From NCBI GenBank assembly GCA_030609125.1, contig JAUWCW010000064.1:1-8996 (forward strand): a DNA stretch of 8,996 nucleotides, in the 5' to 3' direction. Below the pieces are notes generated by a model. The model saw nothing but the letters and a program-made list of their open reading frames with translations, was not told where the DNA came from and did no database searches. The first letter of the stretch is position 1, and each line of letters opens with the position of its first letter. This DNA is from JAUWCW01 sp030609125 [NCBI: Candidatus Rokuibacteriota bacterium] (GTDB lineage Bacteria; JAUVQV01). Position numbers and translations under genes: made by a program. Shown here one piece after another: positions 2 to 8,996 of this stretch.

Positions 2-268
2 CAGAAGATAGCCTATCTCATGCGCTCCGGAGCGCCCGACGCCCTTGACCTGATGGTGGGCTTCAACTTCTCCCACATGGCGATGGACCTGATCGCCGAC
101 AAGATCAGCGGACGGATGGTGGCCCTGAAAGACGGCAAGTACACCCACGTCCCGATAGACTCGGTGACCAGCGGCTTAAAGCGCGTGGACGTGGAAGAGT
201 TCTACGACGTGGAGGAGTATCGGCCCAAGGTGCAGCATGTCATGGGCAAGCCCATGTTCCTCTACTGA
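2..268 (+). CDS. 6-phosphofructokinase, C-terminal part (5' end outside window)
   Basis: This is the last 88 codons of a phosphofructokinase, the glycolytic enzyme that phosphorylates fructose 6-phosphate to fructose 1,6-bisphosphate in the cytoplasm. The reading frame is open to the left edge, and codon 1 of the visible part starts at base 2. The segment [12 protein letters not shown] corresponds to the conserved HIQRGGSP...D segment of E. coli PfkA, which helps bind fructose 6-phosphate. The Arg is kept, but the His of the E. coli enzyme is replaced by Tyr. It is followed by the C-terminal strand [17 protein letters not shown] and ends in GKPMFLY. I recognise this tail from the phosphofructokinases of Geobacter-like bacteria. 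The phosphoryl donor (ATP or pyrophosphate) is set by residues outside the window and cannot be judged, so no symbol is given. No link to the cytochrome genes is evident. Confidence 0.88.
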
Positions 269-417: not shown

Positions 418-808
418 ACGGTGTTGCTCTCTCTCCCTCTGAGGGCAGGCTCGGGATGAGAAGCGGAAAGGTTTGCGGCTCGTGCCGAAAGCCCGGCTCC
501 GAACAACATATTCCCTCACAAATCCTGAATCTGAGCGCGAATTCTGTGAATATATTCTTGCGTGAGCCCTAAGGAATGTCTATGGGGCAGAAGGCTTCAG
601 AGAGATATGATCATTCTTGAGGATTCATGACGCTTGAACCTTTGGGCAGAGCTTTCCGCCGCCGCCGTCTCCGGCTCTCTTCAGGAAGAAATTGGAGGGT
701 AGCTTTTTTCGATGCAGGAAATCCAGTGACAAAAGGGGAGTGGTATGGCTGGCTTCGCCGTGAACCGCCTGCCTGCCGGGTTCTTGTCCAGCCGGCCACA
801 TTCCCGCC

Positions 809-836
809 TTGACAGCCCGCTCAACACCTGCAAAAT
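809..836 (+). promoter_or_regulatory. weak sigma-70-type promoter candidate for the prolyl isomerase
   Basis: A perfect -35 hexamer TTGACA (809-814) is followed, after 16 bases, by CAAAAT (831-836), which matches four of six -10 positions. Transcription would begin close to 843, immediately before the ATG at 844. The mRNA would then be almost leaderless for the first ATG, or would use GGAG (846-849) for the ATG at 853. Single promoter matches like this occur often by chance, so support is weak. Confidence 0.25.
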
Positions 837-843
837 ACGCCTT

Positions 844-1824
844 ATGGAGACTATGAAGTGCCCCGCACCGGTCGGGCTCGCCACTCTTACGTTCCTCCTC
901 CTGCTCACGGCCGCGCTCCCTTCCCCGGCGGGAGAAACCGTGGCCTTCGTCAACAAGGTGCCGATCAGTCTGGATTTCTACAACCAGTGCCGGCCCGCCT
1001 TTCTCAAGCAGAAAGGGATCCCGCCCGGGCAGTCCGGCGCCAAAGAGAGCAGCGGCGGGTTGAAGCGGGACCTGATAGATTGGCTCATCGACCGGGAACT
1101 GCTTTTCCAGGAGGCGAGGGAGACGGGGTACCTGGCCGGAAGCGACAGCGTGGATGAAGAACTCGAGAGAATCCTCAGGCCATTCAATTCACAGGAAAGA
1201 TTCGCGAGTACCCTCAGCCGCAACAACTTCACACTTGAGCAGTACAGGGAATTTCTCCGGCGCCGGCTCACAATTGAAAAATTTCTCAAGAACGAAATCG
1301 CCGGAACAGTCGAGGTGACGGACGAGGAGGTCGACGCCCACCATAACGCCCATCTCGATCGGTTCCGAACTCCGGAGCAGGTTCGCGTCTCCCACATAAT
1401 GGTCAGGGTCCCCCATGACGCCGGAACGGCTGAGAGAGAGGCGGCGAGGAAAAGGCTCGAGGAAATCCTCCGGGCCCATCAGGACGGGGTGGATTTCAGC
1501 GAGTTGGCCAGGAAGCACTCGGACTGCTCCAGCAGTGTAAAGGGAGGCGACCTGGGCTTTTTCGCCAGGGGAAAGATGTCTCCTTCCTTCGAAGAGAGGG
1601 CGTTTTCGCTGCAGACGGGATCAGTCTCCGGAATTGTCGAGACGCCCTTCGGGTACCATGTGATCAAGGTCGAAGAACGCAGGGAAGCCGCAAGAATTTC
1701 CCCCGAGGAAGTGGCCGCCACGCTGAGAGAATCTCTACGGGAGATCAAGGTCGACGAGGCCGTAGAAGAAAGGCTGCAAATCCTCAGGGACCGGGCCTCC
1801 GTGGAGATAACACAGCAGTTCTGA
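844..1824 (+). CDS. secreted parvulin-type peptidyl-prolyl cis-trans isomerase (SurA/PrsA-like)
   Basis: This is a 326-residue periplasmic folding catalyst that should isomerise peptide bonds before proline in exported proteins. Residues 1-30 form a signal peptide: a short charged start, a Leu-rich core (TFLLLLTAALP) and a small-residue cleavage region before ETVAFVNK. There is no lipobox. Residues 31-180 resemble the helical chaperone region of SurA/PrsA, including the AFVNKVPISLDFY opening and the charged helix LIDRELLFQEA. Residues 181-278 are a complete parvulin domain: SHIMV with His184, DCSSS with Cys228, GGDLGFFARG, FEERAF, and FGYHVIK with His272. A coiled, charged tail follows. The start at 844 was chosen because it opens a standard signal peptide; 853 is equally possible. 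The in-frame ATG at 745 has a strong AAGGGGAG site (733-740), but it would put 33 extra residues before the signal peptide. The gene converges on the LamG/Big_1 gene, which may be a client along with the cytochrome. Confidence 0.9.
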   Translation: METMKCPAPVGLATLTFLLLLTAALPSPAGETVAFVNKVPISLDFYNQCRPAFLKQKGIPPGQSGAKESSGGLKRDLIDWLIDRELLFQEARETGYLAGSDSVDEELERILRPFNSQERFASTLSRNNFTLEQYREFLRRRLTIEKFLKNEIAGTVEVTDEEVDAHHNAHLDRFRTPEQVRVSHIMVRVPHDAGTAEREAARKRLEEILRAHQDGVDFSELARKHSDCSSSVKGGDLGFFARGKMSPSFEERAFSLQTGSVSGIVETPFGYHVIKVEERREAARISPEEVAATLRESLREIKVDEAVEERLQILRDRASVEITQQF

Positions 1825-1843
1825 CGGTTGGGCTGACCGTCAG
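1821..1843. terminator. hairpin shared by two convergent gene ends
   Basis: CTGACGGT (1821-1828) pairs perfectly with ACCGTCAG (1836-1843) around a 7-base loop. The stop codon of the prolyl isomerase (TGA, 1822-1824) lies in the left arm. The stop codon of the opposing gene (TCA on this strand, 1842-1840) lies in the right arm. The position between convergent genes suggests a bidirectional transcription stop, but neither side has a T-run, so intrinsic termination is uncertain. Confidence 0.45.
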
Positions 1844-4329
1844 AAGAAGCTGTAATCGGTTACCGCGAGGGCGAGCGCACGGGCCGCCGTAAGCTCCTCT
1901 TCGGTCGGGACGGTCGACCGGACAGTCACCTCGATGATCGCCTTGCCGGGGATTCTTCCGGCGACGAACTCGGCGGTTGAGATGCCGTCCTCGTCGGTGA
2001 GTTCCTCTATGCTGCGCAGACGGCCTTGTCCAATGGCCACCACATACTCCACTTCGATGCCTTCGTTGGGGTTGTCGTTGATGTCCGTGACCAGCACCTC
2101 GAGGTCCGCCTTGCTTCGCCCATCGGCCGGCAGGATGTCGGGAACAACGGTAATGGCGATCTTGGCCGGAGCGTCACTGCGCAGTTCGATCCTGACCACT
2201 CCGCTGATGCCCACATCCTGGTCTATCGCCGTGATAAGCACGACACCGATCTTCTTGCCGGCGGTGTAGACCGCCCGGGCCTTGCCGTTGTTGTCGGTGG
2301 TGCCCGACACTGTGCGGATGGACCCGCTTCCCGCGGTGACCCGGAAGCTCACCCGGTGGCCTTCCGCGGGAATACCGTCCCTGGAGACGAAGGCCGTTAT
2401 CCTGGCCGTACTCTCGCCGTCGGCCGTGAGCCATTCGTCGCTGGAGGTCACCACGATCGAGTAGCCGAGGGCCTTCCCGGCGACCTGCTGAACGGCTTCG
2501 AGTTCAACCTCCGCCCGAGCCCTGATAAAGGTCTTGACATACCCGGCGCCGGTGTCGTTGCTCAACATGTCGCGGGCGACGATGATGGCCGTCTTGGCCG
2601 CGAAACCGGCGGTATAGGTCGCCGTCACCTGACCGAACAGATCGGTCTCACCCCAGAAATCCCGCCTCAGGGAGCCGCCCACCTCGTCGGCAAACTGACC
2701 GCCGCCGACAACGCCCGTGAATTGGGAAGTCGTGGCGAGGATGAACCCGATCTCATGTCCCGCAACGGCTTCCTCGTTGGCGTCCGTGACCGTTACGAGA
2801 ACCGTGGACTTCGATTCTTCGTCGGCCTCCAGCTCCTGTGGGGAGGCGTGAACGATGATAGTAAGGGAGGCGTCGATCTCGAACTGCTCATCTCCGACCA
2901 TGGTCGCCTGCGCCTCTCCCCGCGAGAGATGCCCGACCACGAGTGCCACGGGATAGCGGTCCCGGTAGTCCACCACGAAGGCGCCTTCGTACTTGCCCGG
3001 ACTTTCAGGATCTTCACTCATGGAGAGCCCGGAATGCGGCCGGATGACGTGCTGGAAGCTGCCGTCGTCCATCACGGCTACAACGGCGGTGTAGTAGGGA
3101 ACGTCCGCCTCGAGCCCCTCTATGGTGTAGCTCTGTGCCTGGACTTCGAGGACCTCGACCGGTTCCATCTCCTCCGTCACCGCGGCGATAGGCTCGCGAC
3201 TGACGAACACCCGATATTCCTCCACGTCCCGCAGGTTGATTTCGCCTTCATCGAAGAAGGTTATCTCCTCGAGATAGACACCGTACCCCTGCCAGCTCAG
3301 TTCGATCTTTCCCTTTATGTCAGGCACAGTTACGATGTCGAAGGTTGCGGTCGCCCCCGCCGTTCCCTCCAGTGCCACCGTCATTGTATCGCCGGCGACC
3401 AGCTTCAGCGAGAAGCCCGCAACGCTGACGCCGTTGTGCTCGACGGAAAGTATCTCGGGCTGACCCTCCGCGGCGCCGATCCGGGCAAGATCGAAGGAGG
3501 TGACCACCGTATCGTGGAAGCGCAGATCGTCGAGGATGGAATTTTCGAGGTAGCGGACCCCCCTTCCTATCCCCTTGTCCCAGTCCTTGCCTTCCGCACC
3601 AACCCGGACCTCAGTCACCCCGGAGAGGTCCAAGCGGCCGTTTTTCATGGTGACCTTGCCCATCTCCGTACTCCGAACCTGGGCGTAGGAACCGACGGGA
3701 GGATAGGCGCTCGTGAGGGCCTTCCCGTTCACCAGGACCTGGTTCTCCCCCTCCGCCGCCCCGTAGGTGAGGGCCACATGTATCCACTCCCCGGCCCGGG
3801 GCGTGAAATCGAGAGGGATTACTTCCCCCCACACGTTCAGGTCGTAGGCTGGGTCGGCCGTCCTCTTCGAGTCCATGAGGAGCTCTGCCCCCCCTCCGAA
3901 CTCGCTGCCTTCCCACTGGATGTACACGGTGAGAATATTGCGGTCCTCGTGGTCCACAAACTCGAGGACCGGCTCGCGGCCCCGGCTCTTATCCCCGCTG
4001 TTCCGGCGCTGCAACCAGAACTCAATCGTCCCCTCCTGCCCTCTGAGTCTCGTAACGAGACCCTGGGACAGGATCAGGCCGCCGAAATCAGTCCGAGTCG
4101 AGCGGTCCACGGTAAACCCCTGGAGGCCGTCTTCGGTCTCCACCACGCGCGCCGTGCCCACGGCTCTGACCGCCGAAGGGCTGTCAAAGGTCTCCTCGTA
4201 GATGATCTCCGCGGAGGCCCCGCCCGACAGCGTCAGGACCAGGCCGGTTGCCACAAGCACGGCCGGCAGAGAGAAACGTCTCCCACCGGCTCTCCTTGCC
4301 GTTCTTCTCTTCCTTGCCACTCTGTTCAT
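1840..4329 (-). CDS. secreted LamG / Fn3-like / triple Big_1 (invasin-type Ig-like) surface protein
   Basis: This 829-residue exported protein has no visible catalytic motif. Residues 1-40 form a long signal peptide: a basic n-region (RVARKRRTARRAGGRR), a hydrophobic core, and cleavage at GGASA-EIIYEE. Residues about 43-295 fit a concanavalin-like LamG jellyroll, with GTIEFWLQ, WIHVALTYG, QVLVNGKAL and ILDDLRFHDT. Residues about 335-425 resemble a fibronectin type III module (KIELSWQ, EEYRVFVS, YTIEGLEADVPYYTAVVAV). Three Big_1-type Ig-like domains follow, at about 487-590, 620-703 and 722-804. Each has the strand pattern of T/S-V-x-V-T-D, a central G-x-x-V-x-F and a T-D-x-x-G-x-x-x-A-x-Y-x-A-G segment. 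The protein ends 25 residues later without an anchor, so it is probably periplasmic or released to the surface. The ATG at 4329 was chosen over an in-frame GTG at 4401 because AGGG lies seven bases upstream and the signal peptide begins there. It follows the giant cytochrome by 153 bases on the same strand. A role as adhesin or scaffold is an inference. Confidence 0.82.
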   Translation of the reverse strand: MNRVARKRRTARRAGGRRFSLPAVLVATGLVLTLSGGASAEIIYEETFDSPSAVRAVGTARVVETEDGLQGFTVDRSTRTDFGGLILSQGLVTRLRGQEGTIEFWLQRRNSGDKSRGREPVLEFVDHEDRNILTVYIQWEGSEFGGGAELLMDSKRTADPAYDLNVWGEVIPLDFTPRAGEWIHVALTYGAAEGENQVLVNGKALTSAYPPVGSYAQVRSTEMGKVTMKNGRLDLSGVTEVRVGAEGKDWDKGIGRGVRYLENSILDDLRFHDTVVTSFDLARIGAAEGQPEILSVEHNGVSVAGFSLKLVAGDTMTVALEGTAGATATFDIVTVPDIKGKIELSWQGYGVYLEEITFFDEGEINLRDVEEYRVFVSREPIAAVTEEMEPVEVLEVQAQSYTIEGLEADVPYYTAVVAVMDDGSFQHVIRPHSGLSMSEDPESPGKYEGAFVVDYRDRYPVALVVGHLSRGEAQATMVGDEQFEIDASLTIIVHASPQELEADEESKSTVLVTVTDANEEAVAGHEIGFILATTSQFTGVVGGGQFADEVGGSLRRDFWGETDLFGQVTATYTAGFAAKTAIIVARDMLSNDTGAGYVKTFIRARAEVELEAVQQVAGKALGYSIVVTSSDEWLTADGESTARITAFVSRDGIPAEGHRVSFRVTAGSGSIRTVSGTTDNNGKARAVYTAGKKIGVVLITAIDQDVGISGVVRIELRSDAPAKIAITVVPDILPADGRSKADLEVLVTDINDNPNEGIEVEYVVAIGQGRLRSIEELTDEDGISTAEFVAGRIPGKAIIEVTVRSTVPTEEELTAARALALAVTDYSFF

Positions 4330-4482
4330 TGTACGGCCCTGTCTTTCCTTGCCTCTAACCTTTACTACTGTTTTCCTCGGACAAAGTAACACCTTCTGCA
4401 CTGCCGGCGTTCATCCCGGTGGCGCAGGTCAGGGAGAATTTTCCGCAATCCGAGGCATGAGGAGCAGTGAGGCGCCTTGAGA
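4330..4482 (-). other. intergenic spacer between giant cytochrome and LamG/Big_1 gene
   Basis: These 153 bases separate the cytochrome stop from the next start on the same strand. No terminator with a T-run, no convincing promoter and no riboswitch core were recognised. The minus strand carries a GC-rich block with two CCGG words that could fold weakly. The lack of a clear terminator is compatible with read-through transcription of both genes, though a spacer of this size could also hold a separate promoter. Confidence 0.4.
4337..4340 (-). promoter_or_regulatory. ribosome binding site AGGG for the LamG/Big_1 gene
   Basis: Read on the minus strand, AGGG lies seven bases before the ATG at 4329-4327. 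A second purine-rich stretch, AAGGAAAG, lies slightly further upstream (4350-4343). This spacing supports the ATG as the start rather than the GTG at 4401. Confidence 0.5.
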
Positions 4483-7400
4483 TCAGTACGTCTCCCACTG
4501 CTTTCCTCCCGTTGGCATGGGGCTGCCGGCGCTGGGAGGGGTGCTGTCCCATGGGGTCACCTGGTTCCACGGCAGGTGGTAGTCTTCCCCGTGACAGGCC
4601 ATGCTGTTGGTGTGGGGAGCGTTGATGCCTTGTTTGTAGTCCCGGAACTGCCTTCCCTCCTCGTTGTTGATCGACGTTTCGATGCAGTTCGTCTTCACGA
4701 GACGCGGGAGGGCCTGGGAGTGCGGCGAGTGGCACTTGGAGCAGGAGAAGCGGTGGTACCCCGGCGCGGGGGCCTGACCGGTGTCGTCATCCGGAAAGTG
4801 TGCCGCCCAGTTGTACCGGCCGAAATTGTTGCTCGCCTTGGGAGTTACGCCGTTGGAAACTTGCGTGTGCTGGCTCCCGGCGGACTCTATCTTTGCGTGG
4901 GCCACGACCGACCACCAGTCCTTGGAATTGGTGCCGTGCGGAGCCTGGGACGGATCCCCCGCCTGATCGGGCATCCTTCCCCCGTCCATGAGGTGCTGAT
5001 CGACTATTCCGTCGTAGCCCGTGTACCAGTTGGGATCAAAGGGGTTCCAGGAGGTGTTACCCTCCCACCCCTTCACCGTGCTGTGGATGGATCTGATCGA
5101 GGCCCTTCCGCTCCCGCTGTTCGGCCAGCCGGTGCCGCCTGAGTCGCTGCTGGTGTGGCAGACGCTGCAGAGGCCGGCGAAATCCGAATAGGTCCCGCTC
5201 AGGGGGCCTGAAGCGGGGTAGGCCACGGTCAGGACGTTCCCCGACTCGTCCCAGTAGGGGTTGGCGTTGGAGGAGTCAACCCCCCAGGTGTTGTCGTCGA
5301 TGAAATAGCCGTCGTGCCCGGCGGCATTGCCGACGCCGTAGGACCCGGCCCCGCTTACGCCGGTGCCGTAGCCGCCGCCGATGAGCGGCGGATTGTTGAA
5401 GTGCTGGGCGTCGTCACCCGCACGGAAGTCGGGCGTCTCGCGGGGTGTCGGAGGGGGTGCCGTTCCGCCCGCACCGGTCCAGTTTCTCGTCAGGGTGGAA
5501 CCGGCCGTGGTGATGTCCCCGGCGCGGTCTTCCTTGTACGGCGCGGTCAGCCAGTTCCCTTTGAGCAACGGGTACTTCAGGCCGCCGTTCGTGGTTCTCA
5601 GAAAAGTCGTGTCTGTCCGTGGAGTCACCCCGTGGGGGTCGTGGCAGGGGGTGCACTGTCCCATACCGGCCCCGTCGAGGACCGGGTGGGCCGCCGCCGT
5701 GGAGAGGGATCCCGTCCAGTGGCTGCTCTGGATGCCGGTGCCGCCCGCGTTCGGCTGCTTGAAAGTGAAAGACTGGGTGTCCCAGCTGTCGCTCGTGCGC
5801 CACCGCCCGGCGGCTCCGCTGTAATAGTCGGTGATGGCGGCGCTCACTCCGTAGTCGGTATAGGACCCGGCATCGACGGCTGGATCGTCGCCGAGGTGGC
5901 AGTCGAAACACAAGTCCGCCTCCGCCGAGTACTCCCCGGGAGATCCCGATGCGGCGGGCGTGTAGTCCCAGCCCGACCACCTGCCGCTCTGGCCGACGAG
6001 GATTCCCCCGATGCTCCCGTCGGCGGCGGCGCTCGACCCGGAAATGTTCCAGGAGCGGGTCACCGTCACGTCGGAACCATGGGCGTTGTGGCAGTCCAGG
6101 CACTGGAGGCCGACAGCATCACCGCCGCTGTCGGACCACGCTCCGCTCGTAGCGATGCCTCGCTCGTTGAGGTCCGGACGGCGGTGGGGTGAATCTGCCT
6201 TGAAGACATAAAAGGCCGGGGTCACGTTGAAGGTGTTCGAGTCGTAGGAGCTGAATCTGCCGGTGGTGGAGACATCGAACTTGACGGCGATGCTGGTCTC
6301 GTCCCAGGACCTGGAGACGGGTGTACTGGTGTCGCCCACGGCGGTGAGGGCAAAGGGCTGTACCGCCTCCATGTACTGGCTGTGACACCCCAGGCAGAAT
6401 GTGGTTACGACGGGCGAGGTGCCCGCCCGGTCGGCAGGGTCGAAGTTCAGCACGTCGTAGGCCTGGACTGTCTCGGGATCGATGTTAACGCCGCCGGCGT
6501 TGTAGTGTTTCAGGCCGATCAGCCCGTCATTGCCGCCGGCCTCGTTTTCATAGTGGCAGGCGATACATCCCCGCTCCTTCTGCACCTGCGTTGCCGCCAG
6601 CGCGCCGTCAATGTGGTGGGATGACAGTGAGAAGTCTCCCGTGCTGAACGTGGAATCCGTGATGAGTCGGAACGAGCCCTGGGCGCTGTTGTGGCAGTCG
6701 AGACAGGCCGCGGAGGGGTGTCCCCCCTCGATGCACACCGCGGCGAAGGAGCGCGGGTCGCCGGGCCAGTAGTTGCCGTCGGTCCTCGGGGATGTATGGT
6801 CGGCATCGTTGGCGTGGCAGCCGGCGCAGTAAAGACCGGCCGGTGCCGCACCGATCGTTGGATTGGTCGGGGTGTCGCAGGAGGCGTCGAGGTTGTCATT
6901 GATCTCGATGGTGCCGTCCCGGTGCTGCGGATCCGAGGTGATGAAGTGGCAGGTGTCGCACCCATGTGGTGAGGAGGCCACGTGCTCGATTCCGTTCCGG
7001 AAGTCTCCGGGCTCTCCGTGGCAGACGGCGCAGTAGGCCTGCCCAGGCGTCGTCACCGTGTGATCGGCATCGGCGTCGAGAGACCAGAGGCGGTCCCAGT
7101 CGCCGCCGTCGCTATGACAGCTGGACGTACAGGTGTCGTCCGTGTCGTCAACGAGGACGTTCAGTGTCAGGGTCATGGCTGTCGAGTCCCAGTTGAAGAC
7201 CGCCGTCGAGGGATCATTGGCCGTCCCGCTGATGTGGGCCTCGGTGGGCCTGTCCTGGTGGCAGTGAGTGCAGGTGAATGACCCGCCGAAATCGTCGTCG
7301 TGAGAGACGGTGCCGTTGAGGGCGTCATCGAGGATGTGAAGACCGCTGTTGGGATTGGTTCCGGTCCCGCCCGCGGTGTGGCACATGGTGCAGGCACCGG

Positions 7401-8996
7401 CGGTGGAATCGTACCAGCCGTAGACAAGAGGTTCTGTCGACTTGTTGTTGTGGCAGTCGAACGCCGAGCAGGTCGAACCGCCGGTGTAGATGTCCGTCAG
7501 ATCATACGTGGCGTCCGTGTACACGGCGTCCCCGTCCGCCAGCGTGGGGGGGTCGGCCGTGTCCCAGAGCGGGTTGAAATCGCCCGTGTCGGCCGGGGCG
7601 TCGTCCTTCGTGTAGCCCTGCGGATAATGGTTGATCCCCCCGACCCCGCTGGGGTCGTTGTGGCAGTATCTGCACAGCCGCTGCTGGTCTCCCGCCGACA
7701 TCGTCAGCAGCGTTCTGGGCACGTCCGACCATCCGCCTACGGCAGGCGGGGTCTCGTTCAGGCGATCCATGACAGCCTCGACGTGTTTCAGATGCCGCCC
7801 GGCCCGGTCCGGATAGGAGGTCTTTACGGTGGCGGGATCGTCCGGCCATATCGTATCGGCGGCGGGATTGCCGTGGCAGCCCGAGCAGCCCGAAGGCATG
7901 AATCCGTCGGCTGTGCCGGGGCTGCCGTCGAAATCGTGAGCGTGACAGCCGGAACAATCCGTGCCGACAGGATTGTGCCCCTGCCCCTGCAGCGTGGTGT
8001 CACCGTACTGGTTGTGATTGTTCACCAGGTTGTTGTGGCAGACGACGCAGACGCTCTTCCACAGCCCGTCATCGAAGCCGTCGTCATAGGAGCCGTTACC
8101 GCTGGTGGCGGTGAAGATCACCGGCCTGTCGGCGGTCGAGAAGTCGAAAGAGCCGTTGGTGTCGACGACGGCCTCTTCTCCCGGGTCGGGGAGGCCGTTG
8201 CGGTTGCCTCCGGGAGTGTTGTCGAGCCAGTTCCCCACCATGGAGAGGTTGCGCGCCGAGCCGTTCCAGACCAGGCCGTGAGGTTCGTGGCACTGGCGGC
8301 ACTGGCGGGTGAACTGGACGGGCTCGATGGGATTGTATCCCCCGGCCGCCGAATTGCCGTGGGTTGAAGCCTGGGTGCCCGCATCCGGGCCTGCATTCTG
8401 GTGGCAGGCGAGGCAGGCGCCGTTCGTGTCGGCGATGACCTGCGCGTTAATGGTGTCGCGCAGCCTCTTCTCGGTGCTGTTCCAGACCCCGTCGAAGTGG
8501 GTCTTGGCCGGCACATTGTCCGGTGGGGGTGTCGAGTTGGCCTGGTAGGTGGCGTCGTGGCAGACGGTGCAGTCCTTGTCGGCCCCTGAAGAACCGAGTC
8601 CGTCCCCGACGGCATCGAGGTCGTAGCGTGAGGCCGGACCGAGGCCATGACCGTTGATCGCGGCACCGAAAGTGCTGCCGTTTCCCATCACATTGGGTGC
8701 ATGGATCGTGCCGCCGTCGATGGTGGCAGGGGTGGCGTCGTGACACCACCGACAGATGTCGAGGCTGACAGCGCTGCCGGTCGTGTCATCCACCATGTCG
8801 TCCGTCCAGTTGAGAGCGCCGCCCGTGTCGGGGGGGGTACCGTGGCAGGCCAACCCGAAGCACCGCCCGCCGCTGCCCCCGTCGTTTCCGCCCTGCGCCG
8901 TAAATTCGTACCCCGCCGGGACAGCCTCTCCACTCGTCGAACCGACATACCCCGTTACCCGGCTGCCTCCAGGATCCCAGTAGATGCTCTGCCCCA
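4483..8996 (-). CDS. giant multihaem c-type cytochrome (5' end outside window)
   Basis: The minus-strand frame is open from the right edge to a TGA at 4485-4483, about 1,500 residues, and must begin beyond the window. A TTG at 8853 is not a credible start, because haem-motif sequence (the Cys of CFGLACH) lies upstream in the same frame. There are 21 CXXCH covalent haem sites: 8740, 8557, 8401, 8287, 8035, 7942, 7873, 7660, 7378, 7258, 7018, 6946, 6814, 6691, 6553, 6382, 6088, 5896, 5641, 5155 and 4729 (left ends; each is 15 bases). Atypical sites are CFGLACH (8842-8862), CSAFDCH (7450-7470), CTSSCH (7114-7131) and a possible C-X29-CH (4591-4686). Several sites read CxxCHxPHG or CxxCHxAHG, as in outer-surface cytochromes of metal-reducing bacteria. 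Linkers are rich in Gly, Asp, Ser and Thr, as in secreted proteins. No membrane segment is visible and the end is soluble. The likely role is long-range electron transfer in the periplasm or outside the cell. The partner and final acceptor cannot be read from the sequence. Confidence 0.95.
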   Translation of the reverse strand, partial: GQSIYWDPGGSRVTGYVGSTSGEAVPAGYEFTAQGGNDGGSGGRCFGLACHGTPPDTGGALNWTDDMVDDTTGSAVSLDICRWCHDATPATIDGGTIHAPNVMGNGSTFGAAINGHGLGPASRYDLDAVGDGLGSSGADKDCTVCHDATYQANSTPPPDNVPAKTHFDGVWNSTEKRLRDTINAQVIADTNGACLACHQNAGPDAGTQASTHGNSAAGGYNPIEPVQFTRQCRQCHEPHGLVWNGSARNLSMVGNWLDNTPGGNRNGLPDPGEEAVVDTNGSFDFSTADRPVIFTATSGNGSYDDGFDDGLWKSVCVVCHNNLVNNHNQYGDTTLQGQGHNPVGTDCSGCHAHDFDGSPGTADGFMPSGCSGCHGNPAADTIWPDDPATVKTSYPDRAGRHLKHVEAVMDRLNETPPAVGGWSDVPRTLLTMSAGDQQRLCRYCHNDPSGVGGINHYPQGYTKDDAPADTGDFNPLWDTADPPTLADGDAVYTDATYDLTDIYTGGSTCSAFDCHNNKSTEPLVYGWYDSTAGACTMCHTAGGTGTNPNSGLHILDDALNGTVSHDDDFGGSFTCTHCHQDRPTEAHISGTANDPSTAVFNWDSTAMTLTLNVLVDDTDDTCTSSCHSDGGDWDRLWSLDADADHTVTTPGQAYCAVCHGEPGDFRNGIEHVASSPHGCDTCHFITSDPQHRDGTIEINDNLDASCDTPTNPTIGAAPAGLYCAGCHANDADHTSPRTDGNYWPGDPRSFAAVCIEGGHPSAACLDCHNSAQGSFRLITDSTFSTGDFSLSSHHIDGALAATQVQKERGCIACHYENEAGGNDGLIGLKHYNAGGVNIDPETVQAYDVLNFDPADRAGTSPVVTTFCLGCHSQYMEAVQPFALTAVGDTSTPVSRSWDETSIAVKFDVSTTGRFSSYDSNTFNVTPAFYVFKADSPHRRPDLNERGIATSGAWSDSGGDAVGLQCLDCHNAHGSDVTVTRSWNISGSSAAADGSIGGILVGQSGRWSGWDYTPAASGSPGEYSAEADLCFDCHLGDDPAVDAGSYTDYGVSAAITDYYSGAAGRWRTSDSWDTQSFTFKQPNAGGTGIQSSHWTGSLSTAAAHPVLDGAGMGQCTPCHDPHGVTPRTDTTFLRTTNGGLKYPLLKGNWLTAPYKEDRAGDITTAGSTLTRNWTGAGGTAPPPTPRETPDFRAGDDAQHFNNPPLIGGGYGTGVSGAGSYGVGNAAGHDGYFIDDNTWGVDSSNANPYWDESGNVLTVAYPASGPLSGTYSDFAGLCSVCHTSSDSGGTGWPNSGSGRASIRSIHSTVKGWEGNTSWNPFDPNWYTGYDGIVDQHLMDGGRMPDQAGDPSQAPHGTNSKDWWSVVAHAKIESAGSQHTQVSNGVTPKASNNFGRYNWAAHFPDDDTGQAPAPGYHRFSCSKCHSPHSQALPRLVKTNCIETSINNEEGRQFRDYKQGINAPHTNSMACHGEDYHLPWNQVTPWDSTPPSAGSPMPTGGKQWETY
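4591..4686 (-). other. possible long-spaced haem motif C-X29-CH at the cytochrome C-terminus
   Basis: After the last canonical site, CSKCH (4729-4743), the only remaining cysteines are in KTNC (codon 4686-4684) and SMACH (Cys-His at 4596-4591). They are separated by exactly 29 residues. The arrangement could hold one more haem through a widely spaced cysteine pair, or it could be a disulfide beside a free His. Confidence 0.35.
7114..7131 (-). other. atypical haem motif CX3CH (CTSSCH)
   Basis: The codons read Cys-Thr-Ser-Ser-Cys-His in the cytochrome frame, one residue longer than the standard CXXCH. The surrounding reading frame is intact, with the next canonical sites 27 residues away on the C-terminal side and 42 on the N-terminal side, so this is not a frameshift. 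Haem attachment here is plausible but not certain. Confidence 0.6.
7450..7470 (-). other. atypical haem motif CX4CH (CSAFDCH)
   Basis: Cys-Ser-Ala-Phe-Asp-Cys-His lies in the cytochrome frame and is followed by NNKS. CX4CH haem sites are established in cytochromes c3 and related proteins of sulfate reducers, so this is likely a real haem site. Confidence 0.7.
8842..8862 (-). other. atypical haem motif CX4CH (CFGLACH)
   Basis: Cys-Phe-Gly-Leu-Ala-Cys-His occurs about 45 residues after the start of the visible frame and is the first motif seen in the window. A Gly-rich stretch (GGNDGGSGG) precedes it. It shows that the coding region extends to the right of the TTG at 8853. Confidence 0.7.

What the first reader, a model, noticed from the sequence alone, without database searches (positions are those of the whole stretch)
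4483..8996. Very large multihaem cytochrome with 24-25 candidate haem sites in the visible part alone
Seen directly: 21 CXXCH plus three CX3CH/CX4CH motifs in about 1,500 residues, with the N-terminus still missing. This is well above the haem counts of the best-known outer-surface cytochromes of metal-reducing bacteria. It could be a long single-polypeptide wire or a surface reductase.
Basis: partly seen in the sequence, partly recalled or inferred. Interest (0 to 1): 0.7.

Follow-up and report, generated by a model that had tools for sequence, protein, structure and literature searches.

The report
Giant secreted multihaem electron-transfer protein
This is the C-terminal part of a very large, probably secreted protein built to carry many iron-haem groups, most likely to move electrons outside the cell; its size is not unusual for its family, but its last candidate haem site is held by two cysteines set unusually and variably far apart.

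Summary
In detail: window 4483-8994 (-) is an open frame of 1,503 aa with 21 CXXCH, 1 CX3CH and 2 CX4CH; shuffles give 0.09 CXXCH. The window is a whole contig, so the gene's start is missing. A relative in the only other genome held of this phylum keeps 10 of 11 overlapping motifs and has seven more upstream: about 1,900 aa and 31-32 sites when whole (inferred). The haem count is not exceptional: 15 of 43 complete cap-bearing frames have 24 or more, and an 86-motif cytochrome is in print (PMC12133095).

The C-terminal half is shared with 61 aligned relatives. It ends in C-x(n)-C-H, present in 62 of 62 rows. In the 63 tails with no cysteine in between, n is 18-73 (29 here). Known haem sites reach n = 14-15, so this is probably a 25th haem with a variable loop; a disulfide is not excluded. 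A LamG/Ig-like gene (1840-4401) follows, as in 11 other loci. Most likely an extracellular electron-transfer cytochrome. Structure predictions were of low confidence and haem distances are untested.

The parts
4483..8994 (-). giant multihaem c-type cytochrome, 5' end cut by the contig edge (1,503 aa visible)
   Evidence: 21 CXXCH + 1 CX3CH + 2 CX4CH; Pfam Cytochrome_C7 1.1e-15 and Paired_CXXCH_1 6.1e-11
6784..8994 (-). N-terminal part (aa 1-737): haem region shared with giant cytochromes
   Evidence: 42.8% identical to the G001 2,422-codon frame over aa 1-459, E 4e-84; weaker similarity to L016, L011, L045
4486..6783 (-). C-terminal module (aa 738-1503) aligned with 61 relatives; eight CXXCH sites plus the terminal CX(n)CH
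   Evidence: alignment A5; BLAST to L071, L072, L074, L083 and others
4591..4686 (-). terminal CX29CH (C1437, C1467, H1468): candidate 25th haem site; its loop varies in length in the family
   Evidence: C, C and H in 62 of 62 rows of A5; 67 of 67 complete tails have the CH; n = 18-73 in the 63 tails without an intervening cysteine
4729..4743 (-). CSKCH, the canonical haem site just before the CX29CH
   Evidence: C, C and H in 62 of 62 rows
1840..4401 (-). downstream partner gene: weak LamG-like region and Big_1/Invasin_D3 Ig-like repeats; probable ATG at 4329 followed by a signal-peptide-like stretch (by eye)
   Evidence: Pfam Big_1 1.4e-23, Invasin_D3 1.2e-19, Laminin_G_3 5.9e-4 (below its cut-off); same-strand neighbour of 12 of 75 cap frames; no terminator-like site found in 4250-4600

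Best explanation
The gene encodes a secreted c-type cytochrome of roughly 1,900 aa with about 31-32 haems when whole (whole size inferred from a relative). An N-terminal haem-rich stretch, whose length varies in the family, is joined to a conserved C-terminal module. The module ends in a haem held by C-x(n)-C-H, with the residues between the two cysteines forming a loop of variable length. The protein most likely accepts electrons from periplasmic or outer-membrane cytochromes and passes them along its haems to an acceptor outside the cell; the variable loop would sit at an acceptor or partner interface. The co-directional LamG/Ig-like protein would hold the cytochrome at the surface or tie it to a partner or mineral. 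Shown: the frame, the motifs, their conservation, the recurring neighbour. Inferred: export, haem attachment at CX29CH, location outside the cell, electron flow, roles of the loop and of the partner. Split confidence: electron-transfer multihaem cytochrome 0.97; acting outside the outer membrane 0.7; haem at CX29CH 0.6; partner physically linked 0.45.
For: 24 motifs against 0.09 expected CXXCH. The G001 homologue keeps 10 of 11 motifs at 47.6% identity and begins with a signal-peptide-like stretch. C, C and H of the terminal pair in 62 of 62 rows. In 60 of 67 complete tails exactly two cysteines lie outside CX2-4CH motifs, and in 60 of 60 one of the two is followed by His; elsewhere in the 69 cap frames 74 of 439 unassigned cysteines are. 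Of those 74, 72 lie 5-14 residues after another unassigned cysteine, so wider spacings occur in this family. OmcZ has a solved haem site with 14 residues between the cysteines, whose loop lies at a subunit interface (PMC9473688) and is described as solvent-exposed and needed to reduce soluble acceptors (PMC11208441). G000 has ResB/CcsA-type cytochrome c maturation genes and 74 matches to Paired_CXXCH_1 at E <= 0.01. LamG/Ig-like neighbour at 12 of 75 cap frames, a label that needs at least six gains or losses on the cap tree yet is clustered. In PMC7399161 (Table 2) none of 38 cytochromes with 30-53 motifs was predicted periplasmic; 31% were extracellular and 69% unknown.
Against: No structure, redox or localisation data. 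Both models are of low confidence. The Ig-like neighbour is not seen beside 63 of 75 listed cap frames, six of which have under 300 bases downstream. No haem-lyase gene is regularly near: a ResB query hit 2 of 79 records and four CcsA-type queries none. Invariant C, C and H could also mean a disulfide plus a haem-ligand His. In four of 67 tails another cysteine lies between the two, so the pairing there is uncertain. With 15-27 motifs, PMC7399161 gives 26% predicted periplasmic.
Confidence: 0.6

Rival explanations
1. The C-terminal C-x(n)-C-H is a disulfide that pins a variable loop, and the His beside it is the distal ligand of another haem; the protein then has 24 visible haems, not 25.
For: Both cysteines and the His are the same in 62 of 62 rows, which fits this equally well; n of up to 73 goes far beyond the 14-15 on record (PMC9473688, PMC6976685). 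PMC4245776 states that haem binding by CX>4CH motifs remained to be determined in 2014.
Against: Other unassigned C..CH pairs of the same proteins cluster at n = 5-14 (72 of 74), in the range of known noncanonical haem sites, which suggests one kind of site with differing loop length.
Confidence: 0.37
2. A periplasmic electron store (capacitor) rather than a surface conduit.
For: About 60 residues per haem visible (1,503 aa, 25 sites), sparser than the 22-23 of cytochromes proposed as wires in PMC7399161, which also names charge storage; no porin gene among the window's four scanned frames; PMC7399161 predicts 26% of cytochromes with 15-27 motifs as periplasmic.
Against: The Ig-like/LamG neighbour with a signal-peptide-like start suggests the surface; if the whole protein has about 31-32 sites it falls in the class of which 0% of 38 were predicted periplasmic (PMC7399161, Table 2).
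Confidence: 0.2
3. A polymerising nanowire subunit like OmcZ or OmcE.
For: The OmcZ long-loop haem site lies at a subunit interface (PMC9473688), and the terminal CX29CH could do the same. One weak PDB profile match (E 0.0022, profile 239-422) is 7tfs, which I recall as the OmcE filament.
Against: Far larger than known filament subunits (recalled); the OmcZ entry 7lq5 is not among the matches; filament formation cannot be tested here.
Confidence: 0.1
4. A broken remnant of a larger gene.
For: The contig ends inside the gene.
Against: No stop in 1,503 codons, third-position GC even throughout, 10 of 11 overlapping motifs conserved, and the relative's frame continues past the edge.
Confidence: 0.02

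Closest known systems
Giant multihaem cytochromes of Desulfuromonas (Desulfuromonas acetexigens, up to 86 motifs, PMC12133095, passages seen)
   Same: Very many haem motifs in one polypeptide, expressed during extracellular electron transfer there.
   Different: Fewer haems here; no sequence of that protein was on hand, so the cap was not compared.
26-haem cytochrome of the SEEP-SRB1 operon (PMC5539420) and the OetABI conduit (PMC10553843), passages seen; that the two are the same gene is my inference
   Same: Similar haem number; large cytochrome proposed for extracellular electron transfer; the operon also has a peptidyl-prolyl isomerase, and one lies in this window.
   Different: The isomerase here is convergent and has no match at 1e-5 in the other loci; no porin or propeller among the scanned window genes; no sequence comparison made.
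OmcZ (Geobacter sulfurreducens nanowire cytochrome)
   Same: A noncanonical CX(n)CH haem site with an extra loop (PMC9473688, PMC11208441, passages seen).
   Different: n = 14 at haem 1, near the N-terminal interface; here n = 29 at the last site of a giant; entry 7lq5 not among the PDB sequence matches.
MccA/SirA sulfite reductases (CX15CH)
   Same: Long-spaced haem motif.
   Different: A sulfite reductase with a dedicated haem lyase (PMC6976685, passages seen); no regular lyase neighbour found here.

Membership tests
c-type multihaem cytochrome | many CXXCH motifs far above chance | tested here: met
   21 CXXCH against 0.09 in shuffles
c-type multihaem cytochrome | covalent haem shown by spectrum or mass | not testable with these tools
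   needs protein
Cytochrome_C7 / Paired_CXXCH_1 (Pfam) | whole-protein score above the curated cut-off | tested here: met
   57.6 against 24.8 bits and 42.3 against 20.6 bits
TIGR01904 CxxxxCH/CxxCH domain | score above the curated cut-off | tested here: inconclusive
   26.1 against 27 bits on the whole protein; one stretch 33.5 bits, over the cut-off, in the genome search
OmcZ-type nanowire | sequence similarity to solved OmcZ (7lq5, entry named in PMC11208441) | tested here: not met
   single sequence: one weak hit, cytochrome c3; profile of 47 relatives: 42 hits, 7lq5 not listed, all hits within profile positions 22-422
OmcZ-type nanowire | polymerisation into filaments | not testable with these tools
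   needs protein
OetABI-type conduit / SEEP-SRB1 operon | adjacent porin, second cytochrome and propeller genes | tested here: inconclusive
   none among the four scanned window frames, but the contig ends inside the gene
MccA/SirA long-spaced haem sites | dedicated haem lyase gene nearby | tested here: inconclusive
   none among the four scanned window frames; in 79 records a ResB query hit 2 loci and four CcsA-type queries none; a lyase elsewhere in the genome is possible
cap-bearing cytochromes (group described here) | C-terminal module ending in CSKCH-[NS]-PH...C-x(n)-CH | tested here: met

The most novel reading that the evidence does not exclude
The terminal haem of this protein family is attached through two cysteines separated by a hypervariable loop of 18 to more than 70 residues, and this loop is an exchangeable acceptor- or partner-recognition tip at the end of a giant electron conduit. 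That would extend the known spacing of covalent haem sites several-fold and give a readable specificity element in extracellular electron transfer.
Probability: 0.3. Interest if true: 0.75.

Novelty: new variant of a known kind. Interest (0 to 1): 0.5.

Why it matters
Giant cytochromes are known but mostly uncharacterised. A conserved C-terminal module, found from a phylum with two genomes in the held set to Nitrospirota and Desulfuromonadales, has one haem-like site whose cysteine spacing varies from 18 to 73 or more. This makes two open questions testable: how far apart the cysteines of a covalent haem site can be, and what sets the electron acceptor of a giant cytochrome. If the site holds a haem, counts made with CXXCH or CX2-4CH patterns miss one site per protein in this family.

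Tried and rejected
Broken remnant: rejected for the visible part. Record haem count: rejected (PMC12133095). Extending the gene in its own genome: the relative's N-terminal 456 aa match only this contig. Relatives by single sequence in genome contigs: none confirmed. Structure: window module mean pLDDT 42.8; compact relative L015 58.0; for the latter Foldseek gave no match at E <= 0.001 and VIA-align none at Z >= 2 among two chains; no coordinate files were available, so haem spacing was not measured. Haem-lyase neighbour: scripts used a wrong frame or an incomplete query set, with the frames checked by hydrophobicity, supersedes them. The isomerase at 745-1824 as part of the unit: rejected, no other held locus has a match at 1e-5. 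A second long-gap site at aa 706-754: not supported, relatives have gaps of 2-10 there where a previous cysteine was in the aligned stretch. Alignment A1 held one row out of frame and was replaced. Literature for CX20CH, CX21CH, CX25CH, CX29CH, CX35CH, CX43CH: no paper; other spellings may exist.

Full report
Observation. The frame 4483-8994 (-) is open over 1,503 residues and holds 21 CXXCH, one CX3CH and two CX4CH motifs, 24 in all. Shuffled residues give 0.09 CXXCH on average, at most 2 in 1,000 shuffles. Third-position GC is 0.81-0.85 in each of six 250-codon blocks. The window is the whole of contig C139 of a 2.3-Mb genome in 376 contigs, so the 5' end is missing.

Whole size. The phylum has two genomes in the held set. 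The other, G001, has a frame of 2,422 codons (2,408 aa from its ATG) that aligns with window aa 1-459 at 42.8% identity (E 4e-84). An alignment of window aa 1-560 keeps 10 of 11 motifs in place at 47.6% identity; seven more motifs lie upstream in G001, and the eighth there is the window's first. Its start looks like a Sec signal peptide by eye; no signal-peptide program was run. The full protein here should thus have about 1,900 aa and 31-32 sites, CX29CH counted or not (inference). The relative differs at its C-terminus: it lacks the cap. The same G001 contig carries a second frame of at least 3,159 aa with 71 motifs.

The C-terminal module. The window's last 124 aa matched two further G001 frames. 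An alignment of these C-termini (A4) found 74 loci in genome contigs, most of them labelled Desulfuromonadales, Desulfuromonas or Deltaproteobacteria, with Deferrisomatales, Nitrospirae and a few others. Window aa 738-1503 align with 61 relatives. The C, C and H of the sites at 965, 1029, 1114, 1276 and 1418, and C1437, C1467 and H1468, are the same in 62 of 62 rows; the sites at 764, 810 and 867 are kept in every row that is not gapped there (58, 59 and 60 rows). H972, H1121, H1304, H1414 and H1425 are also in 62 of 62 and may be distal ligands. In the tree of the last part of the module the window sits with eight Nitrospirota, Pelobacter, Geobacteraceae and Desulfobulbaceae rows (100/94).

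The terminal C-x(n)-C-H. Of 69 cap frames with at least four CXXCH, two are cut before the end (L059, L067). All 67 others have exactly one CH in the tail outside CX2-4CH motifs. In 60 of the 67 the tail has exactly two unassigned cysteines, and in 60 of 60 one of them is followed by His. In 63 of the 67 no cysteine lies between the two, and n is 18-73; in four (L019, L072, L079, L081; n 141, 68, 57, 56) another cysteine intervenes, so the pairing is uncertain. Elsewhere in the same frames 74 of 439 unassigned cysteines precede His, and 72 of these 74 stand 5-14 residues after another unassigned cysteine; in 37 frames without cap it is 26 of 157. Five further short frames (L025, L051, L052, L068, L070) fell under the four-motif limit; their tails also contain NCHR. 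These loci are related, so the counts are not independent. The simplest reading is one kind of site, C-x(n)-C-H, whose loop has grown at the terminal position. Covalent haem is reported for n = 14 in OmcZ (PMC9473688, PMC11208441) and 15 in MccA (PMC6976685); PMC4245776 lists CX3-15CH in outer-membrane cytochromes and calls haem binding at n above 4 undetermined. Passages only were seen of these papers. A disulfide remains possible.

Neighbours. The gene on the same strand directly downstream (1840-4401; probable ATG 4329) has Big_1 and Invasin_D3 repeats and a LamG match below its cut-off. A profile of it finds 14 frames; it lies directly downstream on the same strand in 12 of 75 listed cap frames: window, L008, L009, L042, L046, L047, L058, L060, L065, L066, L075 and L076. 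L075 and L076 have the same cytochrome tail. Six of the 75 have under 300 bases downstream. In L045 the Ig-like frame is directly followed by a giant cytochrome frame without cap. All three cap cytochromes found in G000 and G001 have it. On the cap tree the label (9 rows) needs at least six gains or losses, against 8.6 in shuffles (4 of 500 as low). It is a recurring but not constant neighbour. Of ten complete compact members (698-755 aa, 10-11 motifs), eight have an NHL-like frame directly upstream (L015, L021, L023, L027, L029, L032, L033, L035; Pfam NHL checked for L015 only). The isomerase gene (745-1824, +) is convergent and has no match at 1e-5 in the other loci.

Genome context. G000 has four Cytochrom_C_asm matches, ResB matches over the cut-off on two contigs and 74 Paired_CXXCH_1 matches at E <= 0.01, so it probably makes many c-type cytochromes. 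It has one cap match; the other 17 genomes searched have 1 to 15 matches each, some genes giving two. A ResB query hit 2 of 79 held records and four CcsA-type queries hit none, so no lyase is a regular neighbour.

Structure. AlphaFold2 gave mean pLDDT 42.8 for the window module and 58.0 for the compact relative L015. The L015 model found no useful PDB match by fold; the window model was not searched. By sequence profile, 42 PDB sequences match at E <= 1, all within profile positions 22-422 of 700, none reaching the terminal site. Coordinates were not given.

Known work. Giant cytochromes are in print: 26 and 16 haems in ANME-partner bacteria (PMC5539420, passages), 30-53 motifs in bioanode genomes (PMC7399161, passages and Table 2), 86 in Desulfuromonas acetexigens (PMC12133095, passages). 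PMC7399161 gives 22.4 and 23.4 residues per haem for two proposed wires; here it is about 60. I found no paper describing the long terminal CX(n)CH in the searches (listings, and passages of some papers), nor the Ig-like neighbour; most subscription papers are not in that library.

Verdict. The protein is of a known kind, with two features that I did not find described: the variable-spaced terminal C-x(n)-C-H and the recurring LamG/Ig-like neighbour. How the electrons flow, and whether the last site holds a haem, are inferences.

Noticed in passing
window 745-1824 (+): Parvulin-type peptidyl-prolyl isomerase (Rotamase 5e-28, SurA_N_3), convergent with the Ig-like gene, 15 bases between their ends.
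   Followed up: partly
window 2-268 (+): C-terminal end of a 6-phosphofructokinase-like gene (1.1e-8, below the curated cut-off); ordinary.
   Followed up: no
L003 2-9478 (-): At least 3,159-aa frame in G001 with 55 CXXCH, 1 CX3CH and 15 CX4CH, cut by the contig end: 71 sites in the visible part.
   Followed up: partly
L009 9538-16659 (-): Cap cytochrome with 466 residues between two successive haem motifs, which might interrupt a continuous haem chain.
   Followed up: no
L071, L073, L079, L081: Cap cytochromes with long tails (527 to 1,123 residues after the NCLD-type cysteine), perhaps binding domains.
   Followed up: no
L004 9065-10299 (-): Two thioredoxin-like (TlpA/ResA-like by eye) genes near the G001 cytochrome cluster, possibly for cytochrome maturation.
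   Followed up: no
L015, L028, L029, L033, L034, L035: Compact cytochromes of 698-755 aa with 11 motifs plus the terminal CX(n)CH: small enough for expression and structure work.
   Followed up: partly
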